Assembly (NCBI GenBank): GCA_013215295.1
Contig: JABSOZ010000029.1
Location: 1 to 42,009 of the forward strand
Direction of reading: 5' to 3'
Source: Colwellia sp.
GTDB lineage: Bacteria; Pseudomonadota; Gammaproteobacteria; Enterobacterales; Alteromonadaceae
Length of the DNA stretch: 42,009 nucleotides
Every line of letters starts with the position of its first letter. The stretch's first letter is position 1. Of this stretch, positions 21,026 to 38,933 are shown piece by piece. The notes under the pieces are model-generated. The model was not told where the DNA came from. It worked only from the letters and a program-made list of their open reading frames with translations, and did not search any database. The translations under genes and the position numbers were made by a program.

Positions 21026-22051
21026 CTATAAATCAAATTTAGCTTGGTCGATCAGTTTAAGTGCTTCCTTTCTATATTTTGCGATAGTTTCTAACGGTAA
21101 AGAATCCGCTTTAAATGTACCCCATGAGGCAACTAATGCAGAAGGCATCACATCGGTTCTTACTGGATATTCCATATTGGTTTCAGCATAAAGTTTCTGG
21201 GCATCTTTCGATACCAAGAACTCCATTAATATTTTAGCACTTTCACTATTAGGTGCGTATTTAGCCATTGCCATACCTGATATATTTACATGGGCACCAC
21301 GGTTACTCTGGTTAGGAAAATTAATGTACACGCCATCAGCCCATACTTTTTGTTTTTCATCTGCCAACATTTTGCCAAAGTAATAGCTATTACCTAGCGA
21401 AATATCACATAGCTTTTGATGAATGGCTTGAACTTGACCACGGTCACTGCCTTGAGGTTTTCGGGCTAAGTTTGCTTTAAATTTTTCTAACCAAACAAGC
21501 GTTTCAGCTTTTCCATGAGTAGCAATCATCGATGCAACGAGGGCAATATTATAAGCATGCTTACCACTTCGAGTACAAATTTTCCCTTTATATTTACTGT
21601 CGGCTAAGTCTTCATAATTAACATTTATAACACCTAAACGTTTAGCCGAATAAATATTACGCACGCGAGTTGTTAGCGCATACCAAGTATTGTCTTTTGA
21701 TCGATATTGGCTGGGAATAGCATCAAGTAAAGTTTTAGAACTATACGTTTGTAGCAAGTCACGGTCATGTAACTCAATAAGTCGACTAATATCTGTGGTT
21801 AATAGTATATCTGCAGGGCTATGTTTACCTTCGCGAGCTAGACGTTCAGCCATACCTTTTTTAGCAAAAATAACGTTAACTTTAATCCCTGTTTCTTCAG
21901 TAAACTTGTCAAACAAAGGCTCAACTAAAAAGGCCTGACGATAAGAATATACATTTACCTCTTCACTTGCTTGTGCAAGCGTTGAAGAAATTATGGATAA
22001 ACTGGCAAAAATGAGTAGAATTTTTTTCTGGATGAAGGGTATTTTCTGCAT
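21026..22051 (-). CDS. fbpA: Ferric iron-binding periplasmic protein
   Basis: 341 residues with a signal peptide ending AQAS. The mature protein starts EVNVYSYRQAFLVEPLF and contains GIKVNVIFAKKGMAERLAREG and LGNSYYFGKM, close to the FutA/FbpA/IdiA class. The paired tyrosines in NSYYFG are the known ferric-iron ligands of that class. It would capture Fe(III), or iron released in the periplasm, and pass it to FbpB. It is the first gene of the operon. A perfect -35 (TTGACA) with a Fur-like palindrome lies upstream, so iron repression is expected. Substrates other than iron are unlikely given the tyrosine motif, but were not tested. Confidence 0.93.
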   Translation of the reverse strand: MQKIPFIQKKILLIFASLSIISSTLAQASEEVNVYSYRQAFLVEPLFDKFTEETGIKVNVIFAKKGMAERLAREGKHSPADILLTTDISRLIELHDRDLLQTYSSKTLLDAIPSQYRSKDNTWYALTTRVRNIYSAKRLGVINVNYEDLADSKYKGKICTRSGKHAYNIALVASMIATHGKAETLVWLEKFKANLARKPQGSDRGQVQAIHQKLCDISLGNSYYFGKMLADEKQKVWADGVYINFPNQSNRGAHVNISGMAMAKYAPNSESAKILMEFLVSKDAQKLYAETNMEYPVRTDVMPSALVASWGTFKADSLPLETIAKYRKEALKLIDQAKFDL

Positions 22052-23309: not shown

Positions 23310-25523
23310 TTAAAAGCTATATTGATAACCAATGACTGCTGTTCTTGGTTTACTAGGTCTTGCACCGTATGGACGGCGGCTTACTATCTCTTGATCATCA
23401 AGTAAGTTATCTAGTTTAAAATAGACACTGCCCATTTTCCCCAATTCATAACTTGCTGCCAAATCAACGATGGTTAATGCTTCGGTTGTTTCCCCAGATA
23501 ATAAAACATTTTCACCTGACGCTTCTGTCATTTCACTCGTGTAGCGAGTTATTAGATTGACTTGCCAGTTATTTGCTACCAAACCGATATCAAGCGTTAA
23601 TTGGTTTTCAGGTAAGTAGGGTAAAGTATCCCCAACCTTTACGTCTCCCCACATACTAAAATCAGAACTAAAGTCACTATCAAACTCACCTTTGATGTAG
23701 GTGTAACTCAACGAGATAGGAAGGTCATAATCTGCTGATAGCTCGTAGGTGTGCTTAACACTAAGTTCAAGTCCAGTAACACTTGCTTCACCACTATTAA
23801 ACTCCCCATCCGTATTATCTTGGCATAATGAGGCAGTTGAAAAGGAACAACTCTCTTTTAAATTTTCTAAATCATTGTAAAATATAACCGCTTCAAGCTG
23901 GCTATTATTATCATGATAACGTGCGCCCAGTTCATAGTTGATGCTATTTTCAATTTTCACACTCGTTGGCTCTTTCGGGCTAGTCGGTATAAATCCTTCA
24001 TGAATACCAAAAAACAGCCCTGAATTTTTAGATAATGTGTAAAAGCCACTGATACTTGGTAGCCAAATATCAGTCTCTTTTTTCTGCCAGTCGTCTGCTT
24101 GCCCTGGAGCATCATTTTGGTATTCAGCGTCTATAAATTCACCCCGTAGTCCTAGGGTTAAATCTAATGCGCCTAACGTTATTGTATCTTTAAAAAATAT
24201 AGAAACTGCGGTTGTTTTTTCGGTATTAGTATCAGTTGCAAGTGTTGCGCTACCATCACTCACCAATTTACCTGAGGTCATAGTAAACACGTCAGTAGTG
24301 TGGCGTCGCTGAATCTGATCTTGATGAAGTCTAAAGCCAAAATTAAACGCATGCTTTACATCAAATAGTTCTTGGTAAAGATATAACTCAGACTGAACAC
24401 CTTGTGAATAATATTCCCGTTGGTTATCACCTAAAATAACCTTTTCATATTCTCTTTCGGTGTCACGTTGCCCCGTTAAGATTTGATAAAACGGTGCATT
24501 AGCATCAGATTCTGGGTTTGCTAAAATATCCTGTAAATCACTGACTACGGCACCATCTTTAAAGCCATTTATTTTATTCCATGAGCGCTCAAAATCGTTA
24601 CGATACACGCGTGTAGTAATGTCAAAATCTTCATTGCCAATAAAATGGGTGAACTGTATTTGTTGGTGATCCCAAGCCATTAAGTCATCTTGGCTTGCAA
24701 CATAACGGCGATTAGAGTTTTGCTGAAAGTCTGCATCGGTTAAACCTAAATAGGTTTCGTCTGACTTTTCGTCCGCATAAGATAACTTAAGTTCAACGAT
24801 TTGATTATATTGACCGTTAGAAAAGTCATATTGAAACTTAGCCATAACATCATTTTTATCAAAGCCGGTATCACCACCGCCATCTAACTCTTTAAAACCA
24901 TCAGCCTCGATATGTACTGCTTCGACCAAATAACCAAAATTACCGTCAATCGTGCCAAAGTACCCCTTAGTTTTAGCATAACCGTCGCTACCCGCTGCAA
25001 TATCAATTAGAGCTTCCTGGCTAGTCGGTATTTGACGAGTGGTCATATTCAACGCACCCGCAACAGTATTGGGCCCATACTTAATCGCTGCTGGCCCTTT
25101 AAAAACCTCTAAAGCGGTCATCTTACTCATCATTGGAAAATAATATGCTGCCGGTGCAGAGTATGGTGCAGGACCAATTAATACGCCATCTTCCATCACA
25201 GTGATCTTTTTACTACGTTCTGGAGTTGAACCACGAAAACCAATATTGGGTCTTAATCCATAACCATCTTCTTCGCGAATATTGACACCAGGCACGCTAT
25301 AAAGCACACGGTTAATATCGTCAAACTTGAATTTTGCTAGTTCAACTTCACCAATTAATGTCGCGGCCCCTGCTTCTGTACGCAACTTATCATCATGGCC
25401 AATAATTTGAACTCGTTCAGTGTACTCAGTAGGAGTATCATTAGTATCGTCGTCAGCATTGACTTGTGTATGGATGGCTAAAGCAACAGCAAGTGCAATA
25501 TATTTACGCTTGTCAATATTCAT
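23310..25523 (-). CDS. TonB-dependent receptor, FecA-like, of the DUF4856/imelysin operon
   Basis: 737 residues with a signal peptide ending VNAD. The plug domain (about 35-165) carries VLYSVPGVNIREEDGYGLRPNIGFRG, given here by its key parts VPGVNIREEDGYG and PNIGFRG, then ALEVFKGPAAIKYGPNTVAGALNMTT. This is the FecA-like plug signature. The barrel ends with Phe (IGYQYSF). No N-terminal signalling domain and no FecI/FecR genes are present. Its ATG overlaps the stop of the imelysin gene by one base (TAATG), so both are co-translated. Likely iron-chelate uptake across the outer membrane, inferred from the receptor class, the partners and the Fur-like site at the head of the operon. Confidence 0.93.
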   Translation of the reverse strand: MNIDKRKYIALAVALAIHTQVNADDDTNDTPTEYTERVQIIGHDDKLRTEAGAATLIGEVELAKFKFDDINRVLYSVPGVNIREEDGYGLRPNIGFRGSTPERSKKITVMEDGVLIGPAPYSAPAAYYFPMMSKMTALEVFKGPAAIKYGPNTVAGALNMTTRQIPTSQEALIDIAAGSDGYAKTKGYFGTIDGNFGYLVEAVHIEADGFKELDGGGDTGFDKNDVMAKFQYDFSNGQYNQIVELKLSYADEKSDETYLGLTDADFQQNSNRRYVASQDDLMAWDHQQIQFTHFIGNEDFDITTRVYRNDFERSWNKINGFKDGAVVSDLQDILANPESDANAPFYQILTGQRDTEREYEKVILGDNQREYYSQGVQSELYLYQELFDVKHAFNFGFRLHQDQIQRRHTTDVFTMTSGKLVSDGSATLATDTNTEKTTAVSIFFKDTITLGALDLTLGLRGEFIDAEYQNDAPGQADDWQKKETDIWLPSISGFYTLSKNSGLFFGIHEGFIPTSPKEPTSVKIENSINYELGARYHDNNSQLEAVIFYNDLENLKESCSFSTASLCQDNTDGEFNSGEASVTGLELSVKHTYELSADYDLPISLSYTYIKGEFDSDFSSDFSMWGDVKVGDTLPYLPENQLTLDIGLVANNWQVNLITRYTSEMTEASGENVLLSGETTEALTIVDLAASYELGKMGSVYFKLDNLLDDQEIVSRRPYGARPSKPRTAVIGYQYSF

Positions 25524-26770
25524 TAATCGTTATCTCCTGCGGAAGTCGCGGGTAGTTCAAGTGATAAGCTGGTAATAAAATCTACTTTTAACTTATCTGT
25601 TATTGCTTTAACATCAGTATGGGTTTTCGTCACTTGCGCTTCATTGTTAACCAGCATTTCAGCTAAAGTAACCTGATAACTTTGAACATCATCAATTGCT
25701 ATCTGAACGCCTGTAGACATTGAATCTGCCGTATCTTGATCGCCTACATCAATCAAATAATGAGTAAAACCAACACCAGCATCACCCGTTAAAAGCTTTT
25801 GAAATGCCAATAAGTTGTTTTCAATATTAATAACAGAATGATGTGCATATTCTGACTCTACATCTTCAGGACAACGTTGCGAACCACAGCTATTAGCTAA
25901 AAGCCCCAACGGAGTGGCTAACTTTGAATCTTTCGTGAACGTATCTAAGTAAAACATGCCATCACTAATTCGGTTAATGGCCTCCAATTCTGTACTGAAT
26001 GGGTTACCTGAACTACCTGCTGCTTTTAGCGTGCTTGCAAAACCATTACTACCAGACCAAGCTGTTATTAATTCCTGAGCACTATTATTAACATCGCGTG
26101 CAGCCTCAACGGCAAACTCACAGCGAGCTACTTTTCGATATTCATCTGTTTGATTGTCCCAATTTTCAGGCTGAGTACTTGTTGTACAGCTGTGATTGAG
26201 TTGCTCATTAAACAATAAATATTCGATTGCAGCTAAGCCACGTCGCGAAGGGGTGCGATTGGCAATATTATAGGGTTGTCCATTGACTACCCCTGCTTTA
26301 AAATTAACGATTTCAAAATCTACCGAGCATGAATTAACAACAGGCCACGAATAAATTTTATCTCGCAATAAGCCGTCATTTTCAGCTAAAGGCCCTACTT
26401 TCATCACCTCCGCTTGCTGCCATACATTCATCGTATTACGCCATGCAGTCTTTGCTTGATCACGTGAACTGGTAACTTCCTCGCTGGTTGCATTACCTAA
26501 AGCGGCATCGGTTTCCATTTGGCAATATGCCATTAATGCTGGGATTTGTTCAGCAGATATTGTAGAGAATTGTTCAAAAATAGGGGTTATTATATTATCG
26601 GTAATGTTCTCAAGTAACGCTTGTGTATTAAAATTAGTGTCTGGATTTGGCGTGGGAGTTGTACCAAAATCTGAACCACTGCTACTACTGGTACTTTCCC
26701 CGCAAGCACTCACTAATATAGCCGCACCAACAGCTATAGATAGTACGGTACGGTTAATGTTTATTGACAT
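25523..26770 (-). CDS. Imelysin-like lipoprotein
   Basis: 415 residues. The lipobox VSAC ends a short signal peptide, and a Ser/Thr/Pro-rich linker follows (about 25-48). The imelysin (peptidase M75-like) domain covers about 50-400, a two-bundle helical fold found in iron-regulated proteins such as IrpA. The family's GxHxxE motif appears here as GLAAIE (about 180-185, in RRGLAAIEYLLF): glycine and glutamate are kept but the histidine is replaced by alanine. Peptidase activity is not expected for this family. It probably acts in iron handling at the membrane, with the FecA-like receptor encoded immediately downstream. It begins 150 bases after the DUF4856 gene, beyond a strong hairpin. Confidence 0.88.
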   Translation of the reverse strand: MSININRTVLSIAVGAAILVSACGESTSSSSGSDFGTTPTPNPDTNFNTQALLENITDNIITPIFEQFSTISAEQIPALMAYCQMETDAALGNATSEEVTSSRDQAKTAWRNTMNVWQQAEVMKVGPLAENDGLLRDKIYSWPVVNSCSVDFEIVNFKAGVVNGQPYNIANRTPSRRGLAAIEYLLFNEQLNHSCTTSTQPENWDNQTDEYRKVARCEFAVEAARDVNNSAQELITAWSGSNGFASTLKAAGSSGNPFSTELEAINRISDGMFYLDTFTKDSKLATPLGLLANSCGSQRCPEDVESEYAHHSVINIENNLLAFQKLLTGDAGVGFTHYLIDVGDQDTADSMSTGVQIAIDDVQSYQVTLAEMLVNNEAQVTKTHTDVKAITDKLKVDFITSLSLELPATSAGDND

Positions 26771-26920: not shown

Positions 26921-28657
26921 TTACCAATTGGCAACATTTGTCGCATCAAAACTTAACGCTGCTTGTAATATATCACGCGCTTTTTTAAGATCTGCAATGT
27001 AAGTTGCTACATCTGTTGTATCAGAAGAACCAAATGCTATCGTTACAGGCTTTAGTCCGATGAACGTGTGAATTTCAGCAAATTGTGCGTCAGTAATGGG
27101 TGAGTGCGGGTTAAATTGTAAGCCTAATGCAAAGCCTTTCATTTCAGACCAATGTTTAGCAACATCTTCAAAATCGTAATCTGCAGTACCTGATTTATCT
27201 AAATCAACACTTACGTCATTAATATAATGAATAACAGTCGCGGCAACTGCTTTTTCCCATGCATTAACGGCAATATCACGTTGTGCTTCAAGGGCTGTTG
27301 TTTGATCCGCAGTAAATGCAGTACCGACGTTATCATTAATAATTTTACGACCGGCTAAAAATGCTTCCATTGCATCTTTAGTGAAATCTGTTGGGTTAGC
27401 ATTATTTGCAGTGCCACGGTCTCGCTTAGCAGCATTAATAGAGTTGCCTAAGTTCACTTCTGATGTTAAATCGAATTTTCCATCAGCGTCAGTATCGTGT
27501 TTACCGTTCCAATCAACACGACCAGTAGCTGCATCATCAGCATCAACTTTACCGGCAATTTCATTGTCGTTATATTCTAAGAAATCTCGAGCAGCGCCAA
27601 AATAACCAAAACCCTCATCGTAGCCATGTTCAAGCGCAGTATCTGGCTTACCATCACCACGAGCACTAATGTTATCGGCGGCTAAGCCTTCATCCAAATA
27701 ATCATCAGTACCTTGAGAATAAGTGATACTCATGAGTAAGAACTTTTGAATCAGTTGTTTTAAATCAGTGCCATTAGTGTTGACATATACTTTGGTAATT
27801 TCGCTATCTGTCGCTTCATCACGTCGAATATTTGCATTTACCGCATTGTCAGCTAATTGATCAAAATAAGCATCAACTAAAGTTTCCGGTGTCATGCCTG
27901 CGCCTGCGCCAACAAAACTTGTACCATCAGTCCATACTTTTCGCATGCGACTAGCGTCACGACCCGCAATTTTACCTTCTAACGTTTTAAGGGTTGAAGA
28001 GACATCAGTAATAAAGGCCTGTTTCGCATCAGACATGAAAGTTAACGCGAAGTTGTTATTGTATTGATCATCAGTCGTACGAAAGTATGTGTTCAACTTA
28101 TCAATTACCGCTTGCTTATCTGCAAATTCATTGGCATCGATATCCGCCTGTAAACCACTACCAATATAGGTATTTAACTCAGCGATTAAGGCATGACGAG
28201 CGCTTTGACCACTATAGCCAACACTTGATTCCCCTGAAATTATTTTACTTTCAAATTTATAAGTATCAAGTAAATCATTTACGGTAATTGTAAGTTCTTT
28301 AGAAAATGAAAGGCCGCCATTATCTGTAACTGTGATATTAGCAGTCAACGACTCTGCATTTTCAAAGTTAGCCATAACATCAGTTTTCAAGCTTAAATCA
28401 TTGCCTGAAATTGCAAACATCTCGCTATCAGTAGTGAAAGTAAAACTATCATCTGAATTTGCATCGGTGGCTGAAAGTGTACCAATCACTGCACCCGCAG
28501 AATTTTCATCTACAACAATACTTGTAACAGCAATGTCAGATGGCGCTGTATTAGTAGGAGTTTCTGGCGTTGATGAACCGCTACTTGAACCACCACATGC
28601 CGATAAAGTTAAAGATGCTGCGATTGCAAGGGCAAGCGCTTTTATATTCGTTTTCAT
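26921..28657 (-). CDS. DUF4856 lipoprotein with N-terminal cadherin-like domain
   Basis: 578 residues. The lipobox LSAC (Cys at about 21) is followed by a Gly/Ser/Pro/Thr linker and a cadherin-like domain (about 40-128: VDENSAGAVIGTLSATDANSDD with calcium-binding-style Asp residues, and ITVTDNGGLS). The rest (about 135-575) is the DUF4856 domain, starting YKFESKIISGESSVGYSGQSARH and containing GHDEGFGYFG-like (ALEHGYDEGFGYFGAARDF) and calcium-like D-x-D-x-D motifs (DTDADGKFD, DLDKSGTADYD). DUF4856 proteins are encoded beside imelysin-like and TonB-receptor genes, which points to an outer-membrane role in iron uptake. Biochemical function is unknown. It is the first gene of its operon and has a Fur-like site upstream. 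Confidence 0.9.
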   Translation of the reverse strand: MKTNIKALALAIAASLTLSACGGSSSGSSTPETPTNTAPSDIAVTSIVVDENSAGAVIGTLSATDANSDDSFTFTTDSEMFAISGNDLSLKTDVMANFENAESLTANITVTDNGGLSFSKELTITVNDLLDTYKFESKIISGESSVGYSGQSARHALIAELNTYIGSGLQADIDANEFADKQAVIDKLNTYFRTTDDQYNNNFALTFMSDAKQAFITDVSSTLKTLEGKIAGRDASRMRKVWTDGTSFVGAGAGMTPETLVDAYFDQLADNAVNANIRRDEATDSEITKVYVNTNGTDLKQLIQKFLLMSITYSQGTDDYLDEGLAADNISARGDGKPDTALEHGYDEGFGYFGAARDFLEYNDNEIAGKVDADDAATGRVDWNGKHDTDADGKFDLTSEVNLGNSINAAKRDRGTANNANPTDFTKDAMEAFLAGRKIINDNVGTAFTADQTTALEAQRDIAVNAWEKAVAATVIHYINDVSVDLDKSGTADYDFEDVAKHWSEMKGFALGLQFNPHSPITDAQFAEIHTFIGLKPVTIAFGSSDTTDVATYIADLKKARDILQAALSFDATNVANW

Positions 28658-29036: not shown

Positions 29037-32000
29037 CTAAGCCGCTCGGTCTACTATTTTAGAATTACTTGTTGATAATAAATATATCTGCTGTTTATTG
29101 GGTTTAGCGCTTTTGGTTTGCCAAAATGCGCCAAAAATTACCAGTAATAAAATGATTGCTAATGCGTAGTAAATAAAATCGTTGGGCTCTATCGTTTGAA
29201 CCGTTTGCTTCTCAAGCTTTTGGCCTTCCACTTGTTGCTCGTTTTGGTCCGACTTAACTTCAGACAGAGCTTGCTGCTCAGCGAGTTGTTGGTTGTTCAT
29301 TTCTTTCTGAGCTTGTGCACTTGCCGCCATAACTTCCATGGTTTTTGCTACTAACGGTGCTAAACCAAAGCCTTGGGCGAGTTCATTCACATGTGCTTTT
29401 ACCGCGTCGTTTAAAATAACTAAGTCATTTTTATTCACTACATCGATATATTGCTCAACAAGTTGCTTTAAACGCTCAGCATCAGCTTGCCAGTAATCTT
29501 TACGCTCGGCTTCAAGCATTCTTTCCATCATTCGAGCAAAGGCCGCTGGATTAATTTTTTTAAACCATTCATCAAGTGCTATCGCTAATTTGTCATTCAC
29601 ATAAATATCCATATATTCATCCCATTGATCGTTTCTGATCAAGTTAGGGTCAACGACTTGCCAACCAAAAAAGTTATCCATTTTTGAAGCTAATGACACA
29701 GCACCTGAGTAACCTTCTTTTTGCAACTCTTTTATCCAACGTGGGTGAAACATGCGGGTACGTAATTCTTTGGCAAGGAATAAACCGGCGTCTTCAGCTT
29801 TGCCATTTTTAGCATCGCGTAAATTAGCCACCACCATGTCAGGGCTCTTGCCGTCAATATTTCGCACCGCTAAACTTAGTGCGCCAAAATATTCAAAAGG
29901 ATCGTCGGTACTTAGCATACCAAATAGGTTAGATGAACGAGCAAATAGCGCAATGTCGGTGCCCGATAATTGCTTAGCATAAAGTTGTACTTCTTTACCT
30001 TGGCTGTTTTCTGCTTTTTGTCCCCAACGGCTATTGTCAGCGCCGAAAAAATAGCCCATTTTACCTAAGTAAACGTCTGATATTTTTTTGTCATCTTCCC
30101 AAGTATCACTGGCCCAGGCAGCATCATCAACCCCAGTACCGTAGTCCCCTGATTGATTAGAGAATATTCGAATGGTAGATAGGTACTCGGCTTCTTTCTC
30201 ATCAACCCCTTCACTGAGCAAGTCTGCTTTTACTTTTTCGCTGTTTTTCCAAATAGAGTTATTCTCTTCTTTTAAAACCGCGACTTGATTAACGGCCTTT
30301 GCCAGCATTTGCATAACATTAGGAAACGCATCGCGATATAAGCCAGTGGCTGATACAACAACGTCAATGCGTGGACGTTTTAATTCACTGTACGGAATAA
30401 TTTCGGTGCCAATAACACGACCACTTTTACTCCATTTAGGTTTAACACCCATGGCGTATAACACTTGCGATTCAAGCACACCATAATGACGCATAGTTTC
30501 AATTGACCATAATGAGAAGGCCATTTTGTCAGGGTAGGTTTTATGCTTTTGGTAGTAATTAGCAATCATTTGCTGGGTAAGTTCTTTGCCTTGCTCAAAA
30601 GCGGCTTGCGTAGGAACACGTGACGGATTAAAACCAAATAAGTTATAACCGGTTGCCAATGACTCAGGATGACGAATAGGATCGCCGCCCGACTTTACCG
30701 GGATATATTTAGCGCTAAGAAAGTCGACCATGGCATCCAACTCGTGAATATTTGCCATGCTGTTATATAATGTTTTGCCGCGCTCGATATCGGCTTGTAA
30801 ATCTTCGCTAAGTTCTGCAAATGGCACTGGACGTTTGGCTGATTTCTCAGCGCCAGCAAGAATATAATTTTTAACCGTTAGATAACCTGATAAACGGCTA
30901 ATATCATTTTCTTGCGGTTTTTCAGGATTTTTTATTTTATCTTTATCTGGACTTTTCTCATGGTAAGTATGGCTATGTGCAATGCTTTCATCTTCGCTAT
31001 TTTCGTCTGAGTCGCTTTGTTCACCCACTAAGCTTTCTGCGTAATGGTTATGTTCGAACTCACTCGCTCGCACAGCAAATTCGCTGCCAAGCATTTGCAC
31101 TAAAGTTGATATAGTTAGCGGCTCTTCTGGAATATAACCATAAGTATGTAAACCTAGTGGCTGGTTCGCTGTGGCTAAGTCTTCAAGGTGAATATGTAAC
31201 GCGTCGATAAATTTTTCAAATGCTTGCTCAATTTGCGCTGGTTCCCAGTTTAAGTCTTTACAAATATTGGTATCGAAACATAATTTAGTCAGCTGTATTG
31301 CTGTTTTTTGCTTTACCCCACCTTGGTCTAGTTGTTTATATTGATGCATCAACTCATGTAAGTTACGTATTTCACCTTCTAAACCAGCTGCCGCAAACGG
31401 CGGGGTCATATGCGAAATAACGGTGGCTCGTCCACGTCGTTTGGTTTGCATTGCTTCACCAACATCGTCAACAATAAAAGGATAAACAACCGGCGTATCC
31501 CATACGGCTAAGTTACCTTGATCGTAAATAGACAAACCGCGTTCTTTACCCCCTAAATACTCTTGAGAGCCGTGAGTGCCTAGATGAACAATCGCGTCTG
31601 ACTGCCAATATTCACGGGCGTAAAAGTAGGATGCAAGATAGAAATGGTTAATAGGAACTAGGCCTTGATGATAAATCATGTTTTCATCATTTTTATTATC
31701 AGAACGTGGCGGTTGACGCATGATCAGCATATTGCCATTACGTATACGTGGCAGAATAAAAAAGTGTTTTCCGTCTTTTTCTACTGCCATGAAATTGTCT
31801 TGCGGCTTGCCCCAATGGTCGTTGATTTTTTTCGTTACTTGAGTCGGTAAAGCGTTGAACCAGGTTAGATATTTATCAATGGGCATCAGCTCTGCCAAAT
31901 CATTTTCTAATAACTCGGTTAATTGATAATCACGATAAAAAGGGTCGAGAATTTTTCTCGCATTTTCAACAAAATATTCTGCGTCGCGTTCCGCAGTTTT

Positions 32001-33341
32001 ATATCCTTCCTTCGCAAGTCGTTGGCTAATGGCTTCAATACTTTTAGGAATATTCATAAAGGAAGCGCCAACATCTTTGTCGCCCCAAACAAATACCGTG
32101 AGTTTTTTATCTTGGTTGGCTTTATATTTTAAGTTAACAAGATTAATCGCTTTGTTTACTAAGTGTTCAAGTTGGTAGTCGATGATTTCTACATTTTGGT
32201 CACTCATGTTCATCGCTGCAACGATCATCGGATCAATAACACCAGCGTTTTCTGGTAAGACTAAAGTGAATGACATCATATTCGCACTGACACCCTGCTT
32301 ATCATTTTCCCAGGTTTCCTTATCGCCTGAGTAATAGGTCATGGCATGCATCACTGGCACATTGAATTTTTCAAACTCAACTTTACGTTTGTTAGCCCAA
32401 TGAATATTACGGAAATTTATAATCAAGTCGACATCGGTTTGCATTGATAAAGATTCATCAGCGCTATTTTTTTCAGTACTATTTGTTTCAGCATTAGGTA
32501 ACTGCAATAAACGGCTATAGTCACCACTTACTGGGCTGAGTTCAAAAAAGAACGGCACGACATAAGCGCCTTTTGCTTCTAATTGCGCAATGGTGGCATC
32601 AATTAATTGTGTTTGCTCTGTTTCTATTAAAGCTCGTTGTAATAATACGGCTATTTTAGCTTGTTGACCTTTTACTGGACGGAGCTTTTTATAGGCGCTC
32701 AAGTCGTTGATGATTAACTTTGGTAGTGCCGGATGATAAATGCCTTGGCCTGGAAAAATAATCGGCGGTGGCACTTTAGTTGTTAACCGTTGATTTGACG
32801 TTCCGGCCTTGGTTTTAATATTCTTAGCCCTGATATATGCCAACATGTTATCAAGGTTTCTACTCCCTGCATTTTTCCAATAATCTTCTAACGTACTCGC
32901 TTCTTCGGTACTTAAACCTTTATTGAGCTTTTCATTTTGTAAGTAATTAAAGGCAACAACAGCGGTATTCACTTTCTTCATTGCCGTTGCGTAAGTATCA
33001 AAAGTAGCACTGGCTTCTCTTGCCGATACGGCATCAAGGATAACTAAATCATATTGATTAAAAAGTGCAGCAAGTGCTTCTGCTTGATTAACGTTTACTA
33101 GTAATGACTTAGCTGATTTTTGTTCAATTTGCCAGCTGGTATTTTCATTTTCATTAGCCACTTTTTTTAATAAGGTCACTTTAGCTGTATTGCTATGTGC
33201 ACCACTGACAAAGAGCATGCTTTGTACATTTTTTTTGTGTGTTTGCTCTATATCGACGTTCGATGTCTCAGCAGAAACATTACTGATAAAAGCACTGATG
33301 CCGAATAATAGGATGGAAATTTTAATTAGGGAATTTTTCAT
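29037..33341 (-). CDS. hmuS: CobN-like chelatase, periplasmic membrane-anchored (HmuS-like)
   Basis: 1434 residues of the CobN/magnesium-chelatase H family. Family blocks seen: VHLGTHGSQEYLGGKERGLS, YPFIVDDVGEAMQTKRRG followed by HMTPPF, SATGLYRDAFPNVM, and the GDYGTG...W...DVYLGKMGYFFG region. Unlike cobaltochelatase CobN it has a signal peptide (1-24, ending VSAE) and a C-terminal membrane segment (about 1389-1407), so the catalytic body faces the periplasm. An insert rich in His, Asp and Glu (about 775-815) interrupts the domain. No cobalamin genes are nearby; an HmuR-like receptor, HmuY and ExbB/DUF2149 genes are. In Bacteroidota the equivalent HmuS belongs to heme uptake and is reported to remove iron from heme. 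That role is inferred here from family and context. Confidence 0.88.
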   Translation of the reverse strand: MKNSLIKISILLFGISAFISNVSAETSNVDIEQTHKKNVQSMLFVSGAHSNTAKVTLLKKVANENENTSWQIEQKSAKSLLVNVNQAEALAALFNQYDLVILDAVSAREASATFDTYATAMKKVNTAVVAFNYLQNEKLNKGLSTEEASTLEDYWKNAGSRNLDNMLAYIRAKNIKTKAGTSNQRLTTKVPPPIIFPGQGIYHPALPKLIINDLSAYKKLRPVKGQQAKIAVLLQRALIETEQTQLIDATIAQLEAKGAYVVPFFFELSPVSGDYSRLLQLPNAETNSTEKNSADESLSMQTDVDLIINFRNIHWANKRKVEFEKFNVPVMHAMTYYSGDKETWENDKQGVSANMMSFTLVLPENAGVIDPMIVAAMNMSDQNVEIIDYQLEHLVNKAINLVNLKYKANQDKKLTVFVWGDKDVGASFMNIPKSIEAISQRLAKEGYKTAERDAEYFVENARKILDPFYRDYQLTELLENDLAELMPIDKYLTWFNALPTQVTKKINDHWGKPQDNFMAVEKDGKHFFILPRIRNGNMLIMRQPPRSDNKNDENMIYHQGLVPINHFYLASYFYAREYWQSDAIVHLGTHGSQEYLGGKERGLSIYDQGNLAVWDTPVVYPFIVDDVGEAMQTKRRGRATVISHMTPPFAAAGLEGEIRNLHELMHQYKQLDQGGVKQKTAIQLTKLCFDTNICKDLNWEPAQIEQAFEKFIDALHIHLEDLATANQPLGLHTYGYIPEEPLTISTLVQMLGSEFAVRASEFEHNHYAESLVGEQSDSDENSEDESIAHSHTYHEKSPDKDKIKNPEKPQENDISRLSGYLTVKNYILAGAEKSAKRPVPFAELSEDLQADIERGKTLYNSMANIHELDAMVDFLSAKYIPVKSGGDPIRHPESLATGYNLFGFNPSRVPTQAAFEQGKELTQQMIANYYQKHKTYPDKMAFSLWSIETMRHYGVLESQVLYAMGVKPKWSKSGRVIGTEIIPYSELKRPRIDVVVSATGLYRDAFPNVMQMLAKAVNQVAVLKEENNSIWKNSEKVKADLLSEGVDEKEAEYLSTIRIFSNQSGDYGTGVDDAAWASDTWEDDKKISDVYLGKMGYFFGADNSRWGQKAENSQGKEVQLYAKQLSGTDIALFARSSNLFGMLSTDDPFEYFGALSLAVRNIDGKSPDMVVANLRDAKNGKAEDAGLFLAKELRTRMFHPRWIKELQKEGYSGAVSLASKMDNFFGWQVVDPNLIRNDQWDEYMDIYVNDKLAIALDEWFKKINPAAFARMMERMLEAERKDYWQADAERLKQLVEQYIDVVNKNDLVILNDAVKAHVNELAQGFGLAPLVAKTMEVMAASAQAQKEMNNQQLAEQQALSEVKSDQNEQQVEGQKLEKQTVQTIEPNDFIYYALAIILLLVIFGAFWQTKSAKPNKQQIYLLSTSNSKIVDRAA

Positions 33342-33354
33342 GTGATTAATATCG

Positions 33355-33660
33355 CTACTCTTTTACGTAAATCATACTGCCGTCGGCCATTTCATAGGCT
33401 GTACCCGCTTTTTTACCTGTACCTGCCCCCATTTTTCCGTCGCTTTTAAAGCTTTCAATTATATTGCCTTTTTTAACGATAATTTCCATATTATCTTTGC
33501 CTGCGTTTATAATCACAGTGACATCTTCGGCAAGGAAAGGGTTTAAAGGATTTTGTGCGATGGCAATTAATAAAGCGGCAATAAGCACTAAAAACACATC
33601 AACTAGATTAACGACAGACAACGCTGGATTAATGCCTTCATCTTCATCAAGCAGCCTCAT
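33355..33660 (-). CDS. DUF2149 protein, ExbD-like partner
   Basis: 101 residues. The N-terminus RLLDEDEGINPALSVVNLVDVFLVLIAALLIAIA gives an acidic cytoplasmic start and one membrane helix (about 18-36) with an Asp in it (VNLVDVFLV). The NPALSVVNLVDVF pattern is the DUF2149 hallmark, and a small periplasmic domain follows. Position and the membrane Asp recall ExbD/TolR, which use proton flow with an ExbB/TolQ partner. The gene overlaps the ExbB/MotA-like gene by 14 bases and ends 13 bases before the chelatase gene, so the three are made together. It corresponds to a small membrane protein of the hmu operon of Bacteroidota. A direct role in powering the chelatase or the receptor is inferred. 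Confidence 0.85.
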   Translation of the reverse strand: MRLLDEDEGINPALSVVNLVDVFLVLIAALLIAIAQNPLNPFLAEDVTVIINAGKDNMEIIVKKGNIIESFKSDGKMGAGTGKKAGTAYEMADGSMIYVKE

Positions 33661-34255
33661 AATCTGTCTCCACAGCTTGCACTGGCAAGGTTGTTTCTTG
33701 GTGATCTTTTACCTGTGGCTTATTGTTAATTAATGGCATTAATGCCACGAGTTCTTCCACCATCCAACGCTTTTTAACCGACGCTATCCAAAAAGTGATT
33801 GATGCGATAACTAAACCAAAAATAACCGCGGAAAATGCGACGATCAAGTTTTCACTGATCCCTTGTATATTGCCGTCAGCCAAGCTTTTTAGTGCGGGTC
33901 CCATAGGGATCATCGTTGCAATTAGGCCTAACATTGGCGCAAGGCGACTGACGTTACGTACACCTTCAAGTTCTTTTAATGCCGCAACGTCAAGTTGGTC
34001 TTGACTAATATTAGGCATTTCATTTGCCAAGCTAGCCAAAGGATAACCGTTCAACTTCAGTTCGCGGTTACTCCCTAACTTTCCATTTAATAATTGAATA
34101 AACGGTTTGTAGTGGCGACGTCGTTGTACTGTCTGACTAAAAAATTGTCCGGTAGCAAATAATGAGTAAATAAAAAGTAAGGCTATAAGACATAGTACAG
34201 GGGCCATAAACAAGTCTGACAGCTGGTACATGATTTGTTCTATTTGGGGGATCAT
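33647..34255 (-). CDS. MotA/TolQ/ExbB-family proton channel protein
   Basis: 202 residues with three hydrophobic segments: about 16-36 (LCLIALLFIYSLFATG), then a pair around 105-125 and 137-160 (LAPMLGLIATMIPMGPAL and NLIVAFSAVIFGLVIASITF). The RLAPMLGLIATMIPMGPAL signature is the conserved TolQ/ExbB core. In this family the protein forms a proton-conducting ring with an ExbD-like subunit, probably the DUF2149 protein that overlaps it. AGGA lies seven bases before the ATG. A strong terminator separates it from hmuY upstream, so its level may be set by read-through. It could energise the HmuR-like receptor or the periplasmic chelatase. Confidence 0.88.
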   Translation of the reverse strand: MIPQIEQIMYQLSDLFMAPVLCLIALLFIYSLFATGQFFSQTVQRRRHYKPFIQLLNGKLGSNRELKLNGYPLASLANEMPNISQDQLDVAALKELEGVRNVSRLAPMLGLIATMIPMGPALKSLADGNIQGISENLIVAFSAVIFGLVIASITFWIASVKKRWMVEELVALMPLINNKPQVKDHQETTLPVQAVETDYEAA

Positions 34256-34272
34256 AATATATTCCTGATTAT

Positions 34273-34314
34273 AAAAAAAAGCTCAAGGCACTCGCTGGGG
34301 AGAGTACCCTGAGC
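34273..34314 (-). terminator. Intrinsic terminator within the hmu operon
   Basis: Minus-strand GCTCAGGGTACTC / GAGTGCCTTGAGC, a 13-bp stem with two G-U wobbles and an eight-base loop, followed by eight T. It lies 13 bases after the hmuY stop and before the ExbB-like gene. Confidence 0.88.
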
Positions 34315-34327
34315 CTTTAGGGTAAAA

Positions 34328-35509
34328 CTAGTTACTGGCTTCACCGGCCATTTCATTTATTTCATCGGCTCTGAAACTTATATTTCCAGAAACACCGTCT
34401 GCATTGTAATAACTGGTTAGTTGTAATTTGTGCGTTTTAGTCGAGGTTTTAATGATATAAACATCAAATTGAGACCATAATAAATGTCCGCCATTCACAC
34501 CATATTGGTACCAAGGTGTGTTATCAAAAGCTTTAACGCTATAGCTGTTTTCTTGTAAGCCGTAGAAAGGAATAGAGGCTGGGTCTAAAGCGTCATAGTT
34601 ATTATCAAAATCATGCATAGCTTGAGCATCGTCAGCAATGTTGATGATAAATTCAGCCGCAGTTTTATCTTCCGTACAAGGAAAATTAATATCCCAAGCA
34701 TCAACAATAGTAACTTCTTGGTTCGTATCAAAATCAACGTAAACGTGAGTCACATCACCAGAACAGACTAGTGACGCATCAATAATAAGTTCTTGCTCTG
34801 CAGCAAATTCAACATCAGCACTTCCTTGGTAAGCTATTTGTAAGGTAATTTGGCCAATACCTCGACCTACGGTAGTAATGCTTGTTGCTCTAAATTTGGT
34901 AAAAGCACTGTCGGAATGAGTAATGAAATATTTTGTATCAGCTGCAGTAACTACATGAGTTTCTGAGTTGTAATCGTAAAAGCCTTCAATAATGTTTGAC
35001 GTTACATCGCCAACAAACATGGTCTCATCAGTTGGAACATCACTTGTTTTAACGACTAAGTAGTCATCTAATTCTGTTTCAGCATTGGCAGCAATAAAGC
35101 TGTCAGCAATCGCTTGGCCTTCCGTATCAAAAAAATCACTATTATTACCCGTTGCATAGGCTTTAACTGCATTATCACTGTGTTGATTTAAGTACACACC
35201 ACTGCGTTTAAAAGCAACATCCCATACGGTGTTTGTTTCTGCTTGCTCTGCTGTTAACTCAACGATGACGTTGTTATCTAAGTCAAAGTACACAAATGCA
35301 GGTTCGCTCAAACTGCCTGTACTATAAGGGCCATTAATTTCACCTTGTATTGGCCCAGCAGGCGTAGTATCTGGCGTTGGTTCAGGTGTTATAGGTTCAA
35401 CTGTAATATCTTTGCTTGAGCTACTACTACCTCCACACGCTGTTAATAATACACATAATGCAATGCTGGTTAATTTAATGGACTTGCTGAAATTTGAACT
35501 TATTGTCAT
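34328..35509 (-). CDS. hmuY: HmuY-like heme-binding lipoprotein with two HmuY-type units
   Basis: 393 residues from the ATG at 35509, chosen because GGAG precedes it and it gives a clean signal peptide with lipobox LLTAC; an upstream frame would overlap the receptor gene. A Pro/Thr-rich linker follows. Two similar units are seen: VYFDLDNNVIVELTAEQAE then WDVAFKRSGVYLN in the first half, and VYVDFDTNQEVTIVDAWDIN in the second. Each ends in a strand pair (KFRATSITT...ITLQIAYQ; TKTHKLQLTSYYNADGVSGN). In Porphyromonas, HmuY is a surface lipoprotein that binds heme and hands it to HmuR. Which residues bind heme here cannot be told. It lies 19 bases after the receptor gene. Confidence 0.85.
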   Translation of the reverse strand: MTISSNFSKSIKLTSIALCVLLTACGGSSSSSKDITVEPITPEPTPDTTPAGPIQGEINGPYSTGSLSEPAFVYFDLDNNVIVELTAEQAETNTVWDVAFKRSGVYLNQHSDNAVKAYATGNNSDFFDTEGQAIADSFIAANAETELDDYLVVKTSDVPTDETMFVGDVTSNIIEGFYDYNSETHVVTAADTKYFITHSDSAFTKFRATSITTVGRGIGQITLQIAYQGSADVEFAAEQELIIDASLVCSGDVTHVYVDFDTNQEVTIVDAWDINFPCTEDKTAAEFIINIADDAQAMHDFDNNYDALDPASIPFYGLQENSYSVKAFDNTPWYQYGVNGGHLLWSQFDVYIIKTSTKTHKLQLTSYYNADGVSGNISFRADEINEMAGEASN

Positions 35510-35528
35510 ATTATTCTCCGATACTCTC

Positions 35529-37487
35529 TTAAAATTGGTAGCTAATACCGGCACTTATTGTGCGGCTACTAACAGGTCTTATATCAAATGTGTTTTGGCT
35601 ATTCGCCGAAGGGTTTTTATGCTCATCAAAAATATTATCAGCACTAATTCGCCATGATAATGTTTCAGTTAATGTCTGATTTAGTATGAAATTTACTGTG
35701 GTATATTGATTTTTATCGACAGATTTATAGTTATCCGGCACCGCTTCTTCTGCTTGATAGACTGCATAGGCGATCAACTCAATATCGTAGCTTTCAATAT
35801 CGTAACTCAAGTTAAATTTTACTTGATGGCGTGGTCGAGCAAGTAAACGTTGGTTGTTCTCATCTTTACTGGTTAAATAACTGTAATTTAATTGTGTTTT
35901 CCACTGGCTAAAAATTAACGCTGTACTGATATCAAACCCATGGATTTTTGCTGAGCTAATATTTTGGTATTGATAAATAGATAAACCCGTCTCAGCTGAT
36001 TTTTCAATATCAATAATTGAATCGATTAAGTCTTCGGTTTGGGAATAGTGGACACTAATGTCACTGCGCAAGTCGACAAAATTGTCAGTAAGGCTAATAT
36101 TAAAAGTTAAACTTGAACTGATTGATTCCGCGGTTTCAGGTTCAAGCTCTTGATTACCTAAAACCATATACCCTAGCGCACTATGGTCAAAAACATAAAA
36201 GCGTTCTTTTAAATTAGGTACTCGATAACTTTGACCCATACCAGCTCGCCACTGTAATTCCCCTTCACCTAGCGTGAAGTTTGTCATGGTGCTAAGACGA
36301 AACGCACTATGCCAGCCAAAATCCGAGTCATACTGGCTACGCATGCCTGCCAGCACTTGGTAATCTGATTTAACCCAATTACCTTGAACGAAAGCTTCTA
36401 GGCTTTCTCGGCTTTCATTATTTATTTCAATAACGTTTTCTTTAGGCTTGTCTTGATCCAACTTATCAGCGTGAATAACCCCGCCCGTGACTAATTCAAT
36501 ATTGTTAAATTGAAAGACCTTTTGACCATTAATTTCTGCCAAGACAATACTGGTATCACGTAAGCTATTTGATTGACCGCTGGTTTCTTGATGATTAATG
36601 TATCTGGCATTAAGCTGCCAAGGGGATTTGGAGTTGTGAGTACTTTTCAAGCCCAACTCTATTTGCTGCTGTTCAACATCTGTTTGGTAATAAATAATCT
36701 CACTCTGTCCTGGAATTGCCGAGCTATCGCGGAGTTTGTTATCGCTTAACCATTGATATTTAATGCTAGTCGCAATATGTTCATGGGCTTTGTTTGTACT
36801 TAAGGTGATGAACTTTTTTTCGACACTCGCTGCATCTTGACTGATTGTAGTACTATCATAATCATAGCCTTTATCATCAATAATCAAAGCATTGAGCTGT
36901 GTTCGCCAACCTGAGAAACTTTCAACCGCATGTAGTTTAATCGTATGATTTAGATCACCATTGTCGATGGTGTTACCTTGATATTGGCTAACATCGTAAT
37001 CGAGCTTAAGCATCGGCTCATCAGTTTTGTGGGTAATGATATTTATAACTCCCCCCATAGCCGAGCTTCCGTACATAACCGATGCAGCACCTCGAATAAC
37101 TTCTATTTGCGCGATATTGCTGGCAGGGATTTGATCTAAATCTGCTGATGATCCGGTAGGACTTACAACCGGTTGACCGTCAATTAATATCAGTACGTGA
37201 TCGCCATCAAATCCTTGCATTTGAATGTTGTAGCCGTCTTTAACACTGCGTTTTACTACAACACCGGGAATATAATTAAGTGCTTGAGCTAAAGTGCCGT
37301 GACTAATTTTGGCAATGGTTTTACCGTCAATAACATCCACTAAGACGGGGGAATCGCTTAATAGTTTTGCGGTACGCGTTCCTGTTACGACTATACGTTC
37401 ATGTTGATCAATTTCTGATGCAGGCTTTGCTATGGTTAACATAGGCATGACGAGAATTAACGACGATATCTTAATTTTTATATTCAT
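35529..37487 (-). CDS. hmuR: TonB-dependent heme receptor, HmuR-like
   Basis: 652 residues from the ATG at 37487; a GTG five codons upstream is possible but less natural. The signal peptide ends TIAKPA. The plug (about 35-150) has VVTGTRTAKLLSDSPVLVDV, LNYIPGVVVKRS, ILIDGQPV and IEVIRGAASVMYGSSAMGGVINIIT, typical of BtuB/HmuR-type receptors. In the barrel, SYRVPNLKERFYVFDH followed by GNQELEPETAES corresponds to the YRAP...NPDL/GN-L-PE region that is conserved in heme receptors. The C-terminus is GISYQF. It heads the operon with an HmuY-type lipoprotein, and the promoter has a Fur-like operator. Heme is the likely ligand given these neighbours; a cobalamin or other ligand is less likely. Confidence 0.9.
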   Translation of the reverse strand: MNIKIKISSLILVMPMLTIAKPASEIDQHERIVVTGTRTAKLLSDSPVLVDVIDGKTIAKISHGTLAQALNYIPGVVVKRSVKDGYNIQMQGFDGDHVLILIDGQPVVSPTGSSADLDQIPASNIAQIEVIRGAASVMYGSSAMGGVINIITHKTDEPMLKLDYDVSQYQGNTIDNGDLNHTIKLHAVESFSGWRTQLNALIIDDKGYDYDSTTISQDAASVEKKFITLSTNKAHEHIATSIKYQWLSDNKLRDSSAIPGQSEIIYYQTDVEQQQIELGLKSTHNSKSPWQLNARYINHQETSGQSNSLRDTSIVLAEINGQKVFQFNNIELVTGGVIHADKLDQDKPKENVIEINNESRESLEAFVQGNWVKSDYQVLAGMRSQYDSDFGWHSAFRLSTMTNFTLGEGELQWRAGMGQSYRVPNLKERFYVFDHSALGYMVLGNQELEPETAESISSSLTFNISLTDNFVDLRSDISVHYSQTEDLIDSIIDIEKSAETGLSIYQYQNISSAKIHGFDISTALIFSQWKTQLNYSYLTSKDENNQRLLARPRHQVKFNLSYDIESYDIELIAYAVYQAEEAVPDNYKSVDKNQYTTVNFILNQTLTETLSWRISADNIFDEHKNPSANSQNTFDIRPVSSRTISAGISYQF

Positions 37488-37507
37488 TTTAACTGCAAAC
37501 ACTCAAT

Positions 37508-37542
37508 CTAAATAGTAATCATTATCATTTTCGTTCGCAATA
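37508..37542 (-). promoter_or_regulatory. hmu operon promoter with Fur operator
   Basis: The plus-strand AGTAATCATTATCATTTTC (37514-37532) is a good Fur box. On the minus strand it fills the spacer of a promoter with -35 TTGCGA and -10 TACTAT, 17 bases apart, so bound Fur would block RNA polymerase. The start codon of the receptor gene is about 25 bases downstream of the -10. Confidence 0.8.
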
Positions 37543-38686: not shown

Positions 38687-38933
38687 TCAATATTTCTCGT
38701 TCAATCACTTGAGCGGATTTAAATTGTTCAATAGAACGGCTTAAGTGAACTGCGTTAGCAGGTGACTTTAATAAATGAACGGTTTCCATCAAGCTGTTGT
38801 AATGATCCAAAGACATAACAACAGCATCTTCAGAATTTCTACGTGTAATTACCGTATAATCAGCGTCGTTTACGACATTATCAAGTACAGATTTAAGCCC
38901 ATTTCTTGCTTCAGTAAAAGATACGATTCTCAT
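38679..38933 (-). CDS. yefM: YefM-family antitoxin
   Basis: 84 residues from the ATG at 38933, which has GAGGA in front; upstream codons in the same frame would give an unrelated hydrophobic leader. The Phd/YefM fold is seen in MRIVSFTEARNGLKSVLDNV and YTVITRRNSEDAVVMSLDHYNSLMET. The C-terminal part (about 55-84) should wrap and inhibit YoeB. The pair normally represses its own promoter, probably in the roughly 90 bases between 38933 and the upstream attC. The cassette starts at minus-strand GTTAGCTGCC (39031-39022), so it carries its own promoter, unlike most cassette genes. Confidence 0.93.
   Translation of the reverse strand: MRIVSFTEARNGLKSVLDNVVNDADYTVITRRNSEDAVVMSLDHYNSLMETVHLLKSPANAVHLSRSIEQFKSAQVIEREILND

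What the first reader, a model, noticed from the sequence alone, without database searches (positions are those of the whole stretch)
29037..37532. A Bacteroidota-style Hmu heme locus with rearranged order in a gammaproteobacterium
HmuR-like receptor, HmuY-like lipoprotein, ExbB/MotA-like channel, DUF2149 protein and a giant CobN-like chelatase lie in one Fur-controlled minus-strand unit with tight spacing. This gene set is known as hmuYR plus hmuSTUV in Porphyromonas and Bacteroides. Here the order is R-Y-ExbB-DUF2149-chelatase. There is no cytoplasmic heme ABC transporter or heme oxygenase in it. That suggests periplasmic iron removal from heme instead of heme import, and the FbpABC operon 7 kb away could take up the iron.
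Basis: partly seen in the sequence, partly recalled or inferred. Interest (0 to 1): 0.78.

Follow-up and report, generated by a model that had tools for sequence, protein, structure and literature searches.

The report
Heme-iron stripping operon in marine bacteria
A Colwellia-like marine bacterium carries an iron-regulated gene set that probably catches heme, moves it into the periplasm and pulls the iron out with a giant chelatase related to, but distinct from, the gut-bacterial enzyme HmuS, perhaps powered by its own proton-driven motor.

Summary
The five genes are real and in the stated order: TonB receptor, HmuY-like lipoprotein, ExbB, DUF2149, CobN-like chelatase, behind a Fur-like site. 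The order recurs in Colwellia and relatives, Fur-like sites are enriched there, and in five other loci FbpABC follows the chelatase directly. Searches of the window's genome found no heme oxygenase, HemS, HutZ or CobT. Periplasmic heme de-chelation feeding FbpABC is the best explanation (about 0.6).

"Bacteroidota-style HmuS" needs correction. The chelatase lies in its own clade, outside HmuS, B12 CobN and BchH. It lacks HmuS features (His1209 is Asp, no Met-rich insertion, no His254) but keeps the essential His538. A chelatase with the HmuS motif exists in another genome of the family, behind a Zur-like site.

New lead: DUF2149 (ExbD-like) tracks membrane-anchored chelatases. It is in 49 of 51 family genomes with a chelatase and 0 of 145 without; across the class, in 17 of 17 genomes with the anchored kind (two known from fragments) and 0 of 17 with soluble CobN/BchH. 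I propose that ExbB–DUF2149 is a proton-driven motor for the chelatase, in place of the ATPases CobST/ChlID. This is untested.

The parts
37514..37532 (-). Fur-like operator, GAAAATGATAATGATTACT, 15 of 19 consensus bases (consensus recalled)
   Evidence: sequence; score; promoters of relatives
35529..37502 (-). TonB-dependent outer-membrane receptor (HmuR-like); likely start ATG at 37487; carries YRVP..FDHS..GNQELEPE
34328..35554 (-). HmuY-like lipoprotein, lipobox LTAC (Cys40), probably two HmuY-like lobes; likely start ATG at 35509
34277..34318 (-). terminator-like hairpin (17 pairs, T-rich tail) between the HmuY and ExbB genes; may set the receptor/lipoprotein to chelatase ratio
33647..34255 (-). 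MotA/TolQ/ExbB family proton channel protein
33355..33660 (-). DUF2149 protein, one predicted TM helix with Asn18 and Asp21 invariant in 46 aligned sequences (ExbD-like)
29037..33341 (-). periplasm-facing class I chelatase (CobN/ChlH/HmuS superfamily), 1434 aa, N-terminal signal sequence, C-terminal TM anchor
31569..31586 (-). HLGTHG motif, residues 586-591; His590 = B. theta HmuS His538
29901..29903 (-). codon of Asp1147, at the position of HmuS His1209
29211..29231 (-). juxtamembrane motif VEGQKLE, residues 1371-1377, conserved just before the C-terminal TM
26921..28657 (-). DUF4856 protein (insert between chelatase and fbp genes)
25523..26770 (-). imelysin (Peptidase_M75)
23310..25523 (-). 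second TonB-dependent receptor, siderophore-type by best model (below cut-off)
21026..22051 (-). FbpA, ferric-ion-binding periplasmic protein
19380..21008 (-). FbpB, permease with two permease stretches
18240..19379 (-). FbpC, ABC ATPase

Best explanation
The locus is a Fur-controlled system that takes iron from heme in the periplasm. The lipoprotein of the HmuY family collects heme and passes it to the TonB-dependent receptor, which moves it across the outer membrane (inferred from family and motifs). The chelatase, exported and anchored by its C-terminal helix, holds heme in its central cavity around His590 and removes the iron, leaving protoporphyrin IX (inferred from homology to B. thetaiotaomicron HmuS, where this was shown). 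The freed iron is bound by FbpA and imported by FbpBC (inferred from gene order in relatives). ExbB and the ExbD-like DUF2149 protein supply proton-motive energy, most likely to the chelatase. The operon anatomy, families, recurring order, Fur-site enrichment, clade and DUF2149 co-occurrence are shown here; substrate, reaction and direction are not.
For: HmuY profile in the window protein and in 22 of 22 members of alignment A4, window included (A4 holds 21 of the 27 full-length relatives listed); predicted fold matches HmuY and BfrB structures first. Receptors beside HmuY carry YR(V/S)P..FDH..LGY..L.PE in 33 of 35 (20 by pattern, 13 more in the printed lines). Fur-consensus matches of at least 13 of 19: 26 of 33 HmuY-type and 37 of 44 divergent-type promoters, against 34 of 173 control upstream regions; rank test p 2e-10 and 6e-15 (related genomes, so overstated); Zur consensus not enriched. 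FbpABC follows the chelatase directly in 2 of 70 loci and 5 of 80 (five distinct genomes, both sub-types). Window FbpA is closest to solved iron-binding FbpA proteins. In the window genome Heme_oxygenase, HemS, HutZ and CobT gave no match, and there is one PF02514 protein. His538 and Glu577 of HmuS are kept in all 66 rows.
Against: HmuS's second axial His (His1209) is Asp in 36 of 36 rows of the two sub-types, as in B12 CobN (12 of 12); two nearby outliers, L045 and L046, keep His. The bis-His heme geometry proposed for HmuS cannot hold here. The Met-rich insertion and His254 are absent. The receptor scores almost as well against the B12 receptor model as the hemin one. Three of 22 genomes with an HmuY-type operon have a heme oxygenase match, one of them marginal. 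HutW-type radical SAM matches, all below cut-off, occur in 22 of 22 genomes and matches also in all 14 controls, so that test is uninformative and an anaerobic heme-cleaving enzyme is not excluded. FbpA binds Fe(III) (recalled), while HmuS releases Fe(II), so an oxidation step must be assumed. FbpABC directly downstream is found in few loci. The window's single Fur-like site is not beyond chance on its own, and some best matches in relatives lie far from or inside the gene (L094, L096, L100, L124, L158).
Confidence: 0.6

Rival explanations
1. The chelatase acts on another metal tetrapyrrole or metal complex (for example a chlorophyll-derived or cobalt macrocycle, or an iron-siderophore), with the same receptor-chelatase-transporter logic but not heme.
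For: Asp replaces the HmuS axial His in 36 of 36 rows of the two sub-types; the 44 divergent-type systems have no HmuY beside them and their receptors mostly show another motif, FKVP..H; sister lineages of anchored chelatases are under cobalamin riboswitches (4 of 6 type C loci) or Zur (P. aeruginosa PA1922-1925, PMC4542158 passages), so substrate shifts within the group are likely.
Against: HmuY family lipoprotein in the operon; Fur-type promoters in both sub-types; FbpABC linkage in both sub-types.
Confidence: 0.22
2. ExbB and DUF2149 only energise the outer-membrane receptor through TonB, as proposed for HmuU/HmuV; the chelatase works unpowered. (This rival concerns the motor only and can be true together with heme de-chelation.)
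For: Published assignment (PMC10100974 passages; PMC12583661 passages); B. theta HmuS expressed alone converts heme with NADH, and lysates need no ATP (PMC12583661).
Against: In the family survey DUF2149 occurs only in genomes with a chelatase match, and in the class set only with the anchored kind, while 11 HmuY-bearing genomes without chelatase lack it; ExbB-DUF2149-chelatase stays together where no receptor-like neighbour was labelled (L133, L140, L149, L159); Methanosarcina acetivorans, which has no outer membrane (recalled), matches both families.
Confidence: 0.35
3. The protein is a cobaltochelatase for B12 synthesis, as NCBI names such proteins.
For: Best NCBIfam model is cobaltochelatase CobN, 1169 bits, below its cut-off of 1248; Asp pair at the active site as in CobN.
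Against: Outside the B12 CobN rows in the tree; export signal and membrane anchor; no CobT match in the window genome; no riboswitch; Fur-like site.
Confidence: 0.04

Closest known systems
Bacteroidota hmuYRSTUV operon with HmuS heme de-chelatase (B. thetaiotaomicron, PDB 9d26; PMC12583661)
   Same: HmuY lipoprotein, TonB receptor, exported and anchored class I chelatase, ExbB, DUF2149; iron context; His538 kept
   Different: order R-Y-U-V-S; no HmuT; chelatase in another clade (phmmer 426.6 bits to 9d26, 340 to ChlH); no His1209, no His254; His- and acid-rich instead of Met-rich insertion; FbpABC linkage; host is a gammaproteobacterium of marine type (habitat recalled, not tested)
P. aeruginosa PA1922-PA1925 (Zur-regulated TonB receptor, CobN-like, ExbD-like, hypothetical)
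   Same: receptor plus CobN-like plus ExbD-like layout (PMC4542158 passages)
   Different: zinc regulon; its proteins were not compared by sequence here
Type C chelatases, several behind cobalamin riboswitches (L050, L060, L118, L119)
   Same: CobN-like with C-terminal hydrophobic helix, ExbB and DUF2149-like genes in the genome or beside it
   Different: RHST and NND motifs, B12 riboswitch in 4 of 6, separate clade that also holds a soluble CobN of a cob operon (L039)
Cytosolic cobaltochelatase CobN (with CobST) and BchH/ChlH (with ChlID)
   Same: class I chelatase superfamily PF02514
   Different: soluble, ATP-driven partners (literature), no DUF2149 in 17 of 17 genomes tested

Membership tests
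Bacteroidota hmu operon | HmuY-family lipoprotein | tested here: met
   39.9 bits, cut-off 27; fold match; single-stretch score 24.1 is below cut-off
Bacteroidota hmu operon | ExbB (HmuU) and DUF2149/ExbD-like (HmuV) genes | tested here: met
Bacteroidota hmu operon | HmuT | tested here: not met
   no gene for it in the unit; in the printed rows (80 loci) no neighbour was labelled by BLAST with B. finegoldii HmuT
Bacteroidota hmu operon | heme-specific TonB receptor HmuR | tested here: inconclusive
   hemin model best but below cut-off; YRVP..H..motif; the motif's link to HmuR is recalled, search found no paper
HmuS de-chelatase family | HFG(T/A)HG with His538 | tested here: met
   HLGTHG, His590
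HmuS de-chelatase family | LSLDHxxEFMGG with His1209 | tested here: not met
   LSTDDPFEYFGA; Asp1147
HmuS de-chelatase family | His254 heme ligand at head/neck site | tested here: not met
   Asn312 aligned; His314, two residues on, is invariant in 36 of 36 rows of the two sub-types
HmuS de-chelatase family | Met79 heme ligand | tested here: inconclusive
   no Met in the matching stretch of the window, but B. theta numbering could not be fixed in the alignment
HmuS de-chelatase family | methionine-rich insertion in domain IV | tested here: not met
   84-residue stretch there with 0 Met, 5 His, 18 Asp/Glu; the two HmuS-motif rows also show few Met (0 and 3) in the columns cut out, so the script did not capture the HmuS insertion itself
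HmuS de-chelatase family | groups with HmuS in phylogeny | tested here: not met
   separate clades, each with SH-aLRT 100, two HmuS rows only
HmuS de-chelatase family | removes iron from heme to give protoporphyrin IX | not testable with these tools
   needs biochemistry
B12 cobaltochelatase CobN | CobST partners in the genome | tested here: not met
   no CobT match in G000; 1 of 22 genomes with an HmuY-type operon has one; CobS not searched
B12 cobaltochelatase CobN | groups with B12 CobN | tested here: not met
Class I chelatase superfamily (PF02514) | full-length domain match | tested here: met
   940 bits, profile 2-1089 of 1090
Fur regulon | Fur box at the promoter, enriched in relatives | tested here: met
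   binding and response to iron not testable here

The most novel reading that the evidence does not exclude
ExbB plus DUF2149 is a proton-motive-force motor for a whole class of membrane-anchored, periplasm-facing class I chelatases, replacing the ATP-driven AAA+ motors (CobST, ChlID) that cannot work outside the cytoplasm. In the window's lineage it would act through the conserved stalk motif VxGQxLE next to the membrane anchor. The Fur-, B12- and Zur-controlled versions would strip iron, cobalt or zinc from imported chelates.
Probability: 0.35. Interest if true: 0.85.

Novelty: new variant of a known kind. Interest (0 to 1): 0.62.

Why it matters
Heme de-chelation was reported in 2025 for a Bacteroidota member as an anaerobic reaction. 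A distinct lineage with Fur-type promoters in marine Gammaproteobacteria would extend this way of using heme iron to other organisms and habitats, and its natural His-to-Asp change gives a direct test of the bis-His mechanism proposed for HmuS. The close pairing of DUF2149 with anchored chelatases makes an open point, what drives a chelatase in a compartment without ATP, directly testable.

Tried and rejected
The first operon walk for Fur sites was cut short by spurious ORFs in some loci and sometimes scored the wrong gene's upstream region. I replaced it and use only for single sites. NCBIfam could not name the ABC transporter: best models are 2-aminoethylphosphonate systems below cut-off; the PDB sequence search settled the binding protein as FbpA-like (one 2-aminoethylphosphonate-binding protein is among the 32 matches, far down). 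HutW search: below-cut-off matches in all 22 genomes, and matches in all 14 controls, not usable. DUF2149 profile against the PDB gave no ExbD; its AlphaFold model is poor (mean pLDDT 66.7). The ExbD likeness rests on the TM Asp pattern, read by eye against recalled ExbD sequences, and on the published statement for HmuV. Archaeal test of the motor idea: of two archaeal plasmid records opened, one is a cob-type locus, one has no annotation; the Methanosarcina point rests on family matches in the control genomes only, adjacency not seen. P. aeruginosa PA1923 was not compared by sequence.

Considered and rejected: B12 CobN; a one-off rearrangement in this genome; horizontal copy of a Bacteroidota hmuS (tree against it for the chelatase; HmuY and receptor trees not built).

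Limits: genomes of one family are related, so the p-values overstate independence; by genus both families are in 21 of 52. The HmuY family search misses some relatives, for example G320, whose HmuY was found by BLAST. Fur and Zur consensus strings are recalled. The tree is a quick search, SH-aLRT only, with long rows L033, L035, L200; the two sub-types are not shown to be one clade without the five outliers beside them. One row that I had put with B12 CobN (L039, soluble, in a cob operon) falls inside type C.


Full report
What is there. The window lies on one contig of a 5.77 Mb genome, G000. The best-scoring named relatives of the chelatase are Colwellia and Cognaticolwellia (81-86% identity), so the organism is Colwellia-like. 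On the minus strand, in order of transcription, lie a TonB receptor, an HmuY-family lipoprotein, an ExbB protein, a DUF2149 protein and a 1434-residue CobN-like chelatase. The chelatase begins with a signal sequence and ends with one hydrophobic helix. A Fur-like site of 15 of 19 bases lies at 37514-37532, just before the receptor gene. The window has two sites this good; 20 shuffles give 0.7 on average and up to 3, so the site alone proves little.

The arrangement recurs. The chelatase query matched 35 of 274 class genomes (soluble CobN and BchH included) and 51 of 196 family genomes. The order receptor–HmuY–ExbB–DUF2149–chelatase is seen in 21 of 70 loci (one with the chelatase as a fragment) and 21 of 80; the two sets share genomes. 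It occurs in Colwellia, Cognaticolwellia and other genera and in Teredinibacter. A second sub-type has no HmuY and a receptor transcribed divergently from ExbB–DUF2149–chelatase (Pseudoalteromonas, Thalassotalea, Microbulbifer, Shewanella and others). L091, L092 and L093 have receptor–HmuY–chelatase without ExbB and DUF2149, but their genomes carry DUF2149 elsewhere. In L088 and L097 two chelatases, one of each sub-type, stand in tandem in an HmuY operon; L099 has the second sub-type alone there.

Iron. Best Fur-consensus matches were taken at the promoters of 33 HmuY-type and 44 divergent-type systems and at 173 control upstream regions from the same loci (the 33 include the Bacteroides control L034, which scores 12). 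Scores of 14 or more: 15 of 33, 20 of 44, 8 of 173. Zur matches are not enriched. Some best matches are far from the start or inside the gene (L094, L096, L100, L124, L158). No Rfam family reaches its threshold in the window. FbpABC follows the chelatase directly in L081 and L089 (2 of 70) and in L125, L127, L180, L185 and L189 (5 of 80; L125 and L127 are the genomes of L081 and L089). In the window four genes (DUF4856, imelysin, TonB receptor, fatty acid hydroxylase) stand between. The window's FbpA is closest to solved FbpA (365.7 bits to 1q35) and other iron-binding proteins. In 22 genomes with an HmuY-type operon, heme oxygenase matches in 3 (one marginal), HemS in 0, HutZ over cut-off in 0 (one weak match) and CobT in 1; G000 has none of them.

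The lipoprotein. It matches PF14064 with two stretches. In G351, G307, G310 and G350 two separate matches, several of them near full length, lie in one frame, so the protein is probably a tandem of two HmuY-like lobes. All 22 members of A4 match HmuY. The AlphaFold model (mean pLDDT 79.0) finds P. gingivalis HmuY and B. fragilis BfrB as best Foldseek matches (E 1e-4 to 4e-4, probability 1.00), with a poor overall superposition (rmsd 14-18 A), as expected if one HmuY domain is laid on two.

The receptor. It cannot be named by model score alone. Receptors beside HmuY share YR(V/S)P..LKE..FDH..LGY..L.PE in 33 of 35 (misses are L034, the Bacteroides control, and L189). I recall that a YRAP, His, NPDL set matters in P. 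gingivalis HmuR, but a search found no paper.

The chelatase is not HmuS. In a 66-row tree the window lies in a 41-row clade (support 100) made of the two sub-types (36 rows) and five outliers. HmuS-motif rows (B. finegoldii L034 and G400's L116, support 100), type C, B12 CobN and BchH lie outside it. One branch with support 99 puts all anchored rows, plus one soluble CobN (L039, in a cob operon, inside type C), apart from the other B12 CobN, BchH and a haloarchaeal CobN. Nath et al. (PMC12583661; I read the abstract, Introduction, three Results sections and the first of two parts of the Discussion, and passages) define HmuS by Met79, His254, a Met-rich insertion and LSLDHxxEFMGG, and show that His538 is essential. 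In the window, His538 is kept as His590 and Glu577 as Glu629. His1209 is Asp1147 in 36 of 36 rows of the two sub-types; outliers L045 and L046 have His. His254 aligns with Asn312, with His314 two residues on, invariant in those 36 rows and absent from the other 30. The stretch at the insertion has no Met. So the enzyme may work like HmuS but is not a member of the HmuS family as defined. By contrast L116, from G400 of the same bacterial family, has LSLDHVYEFMGG and the order receptor–chelatase–198 aa–ExbB–DUF2149, with TGTTATGATATAACA, 14 of 15 of a recalled Zur consensus, before the receptor: a gammaproteobacterial HmuS-type enzyme, possibly in a zinc regulon.

The DUF2149 pairing. Of 196 family genomes, 51 have a chelatase match and 49 have DUF2149; all 49 are within the 51. 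The two exceptions are G348, 84% complete, and G445, whose chelatase is partial and interrupted by a stop. HmuY, by contrast, was found in 11 genomes without a chelatase match. The other 34 genomes with a match were then searched: DUF2149 is in 17 and absent from 17. The 17 without it have soluble CobN or BchH (16 read nearly whole, G191 judged from a fragment's motifs). Of the 17 with it, 15 show a C-terminal hydrophobic helix (14, of which three are weaker than the threshold; L049), and two (G075, G104) are known only from fragments. Three loci were not parsed (L048, L049, L204). Of 126 distinct chelatases, 100 lie near ExbB or DUF2149; 97 of these have an N-terminal hydrophobic stretch and 81 pass the C-terminal threshold. 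Of the 26 not near them, 9 pass both, 9 only the N-terminal one and 8 neither; the N-terminal measure is thus not specific. Just before the C-terminal helix, [V/I]xGQx[L/M] is found in 93 of 95 pattern-sorted members of the two sub-types (misses L136 and L144, cut off), in 3 of 6 unsorted rows, 0 of 7 type C, 0 of 2 HmuS and 0 of 14 soluble ones (two further hits first sorted as soluble, L181 and L191, are second-sub-type members). DUF2149 has invariant Asn18 and Asp21 in its TM helix in 46 aligned sequences, as I recall for ExbD. Published work calls HmuU/HmuV ExbB/ExbD-like and assigns them to TonB and HmuR (PMC10100974, passages and one section; PMC12583661, passages). The 2026 P. gingivalis paper leaves open that they affect HmuS activity (PMC13227078, abstract, passages and section 3.1). 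B. theta HmuS turned over heme in vitro without them, which speaks against a strict need. Searches listed no title or abstract start proposing a chelatase motor; I opened only some of the listed papers.

A hairpin sits between the HmuY and ExbB genes. The gap after HmuY folds better than shuffles (z below -2) in 25 of 33 loci (in 3 of the 33 the next gene is the chelatase), against 39 of 120 sampled control gaps, 0 of 11 receptor–HmuY gaps and 3 of 13 DUF2149–chelatase gaps. Many relatives lack the T tail, so it may be a processing or stabilising hairpin and not a terminator. It may lower expression of motor and chelatase relative to receptor and lipoprotein; in P. gingivalis full-length operon transcript is very low, and hmuY's own transcript is more abundant than the hmuY-hmuR one (PMC13227078 and PMC9331221 passages).

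Verdict. Heme-iron stripping in the periplasm with FbpABC import is the best reading (0.6), but by a chelatase lineage distinct from HmuS, recurrent in marine Gammaproteobacteria. PMC10100974 states that a complete six-gene hmu operon is found only in Bacteroidetes; this five-gene form does not contradict that. The motor hypothesis is new as far as my searches show and is testable.

Noticed in passing
L116 (G400:C56:60001-78000), 4298-12861: A chelatase with the HmuS motif LSLDHVYEFMGG in a genome of the window's own family, with a near-perfect Zur-like palindrome before the receptor gene.
   Followed up: partly
L050, L060, L118, L119: CobN-like chelatases with a C-terminal hydrophobic helix, DUF2149-like genes in the genome and cobalamin riboswitches: a B12-controlled sister system.
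   Followed up: partly
L088 and L097: Two chelatases of different sub-types in tandem in one HmuY operon.
   Followed up: partly
window 22253-28657: Insert between the chelatase and fbp genes: DUF4856, imelysin, siderophore-type TonB receptor, fatty acid hydroxylase; not between them in L081.
   Followed up: no
window 38426-39011: YoeB-type toxin gene with an overlapping upstream ORF that may be its antitoxin, upstream of the operon promoter.
   Followed up: no
chelatase residue 314 (window 29037-33341): His314 is invariant in 36 of 36 rows of the two sub-types and absent from the other 30, two residues from the aligned HmuS His254; a possible substitute heme ligand.
   Followed up: partly
family survey: Eleven genomes have an HmuY match but no chelatase and no DUF2149, so HmuY also works in another context.
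   Followed up: no
G445:C70: Chelatase partial and interrupted by a stop, and no DUF2149 found in that genome: both parts may have been lost together.
   Followed up: no
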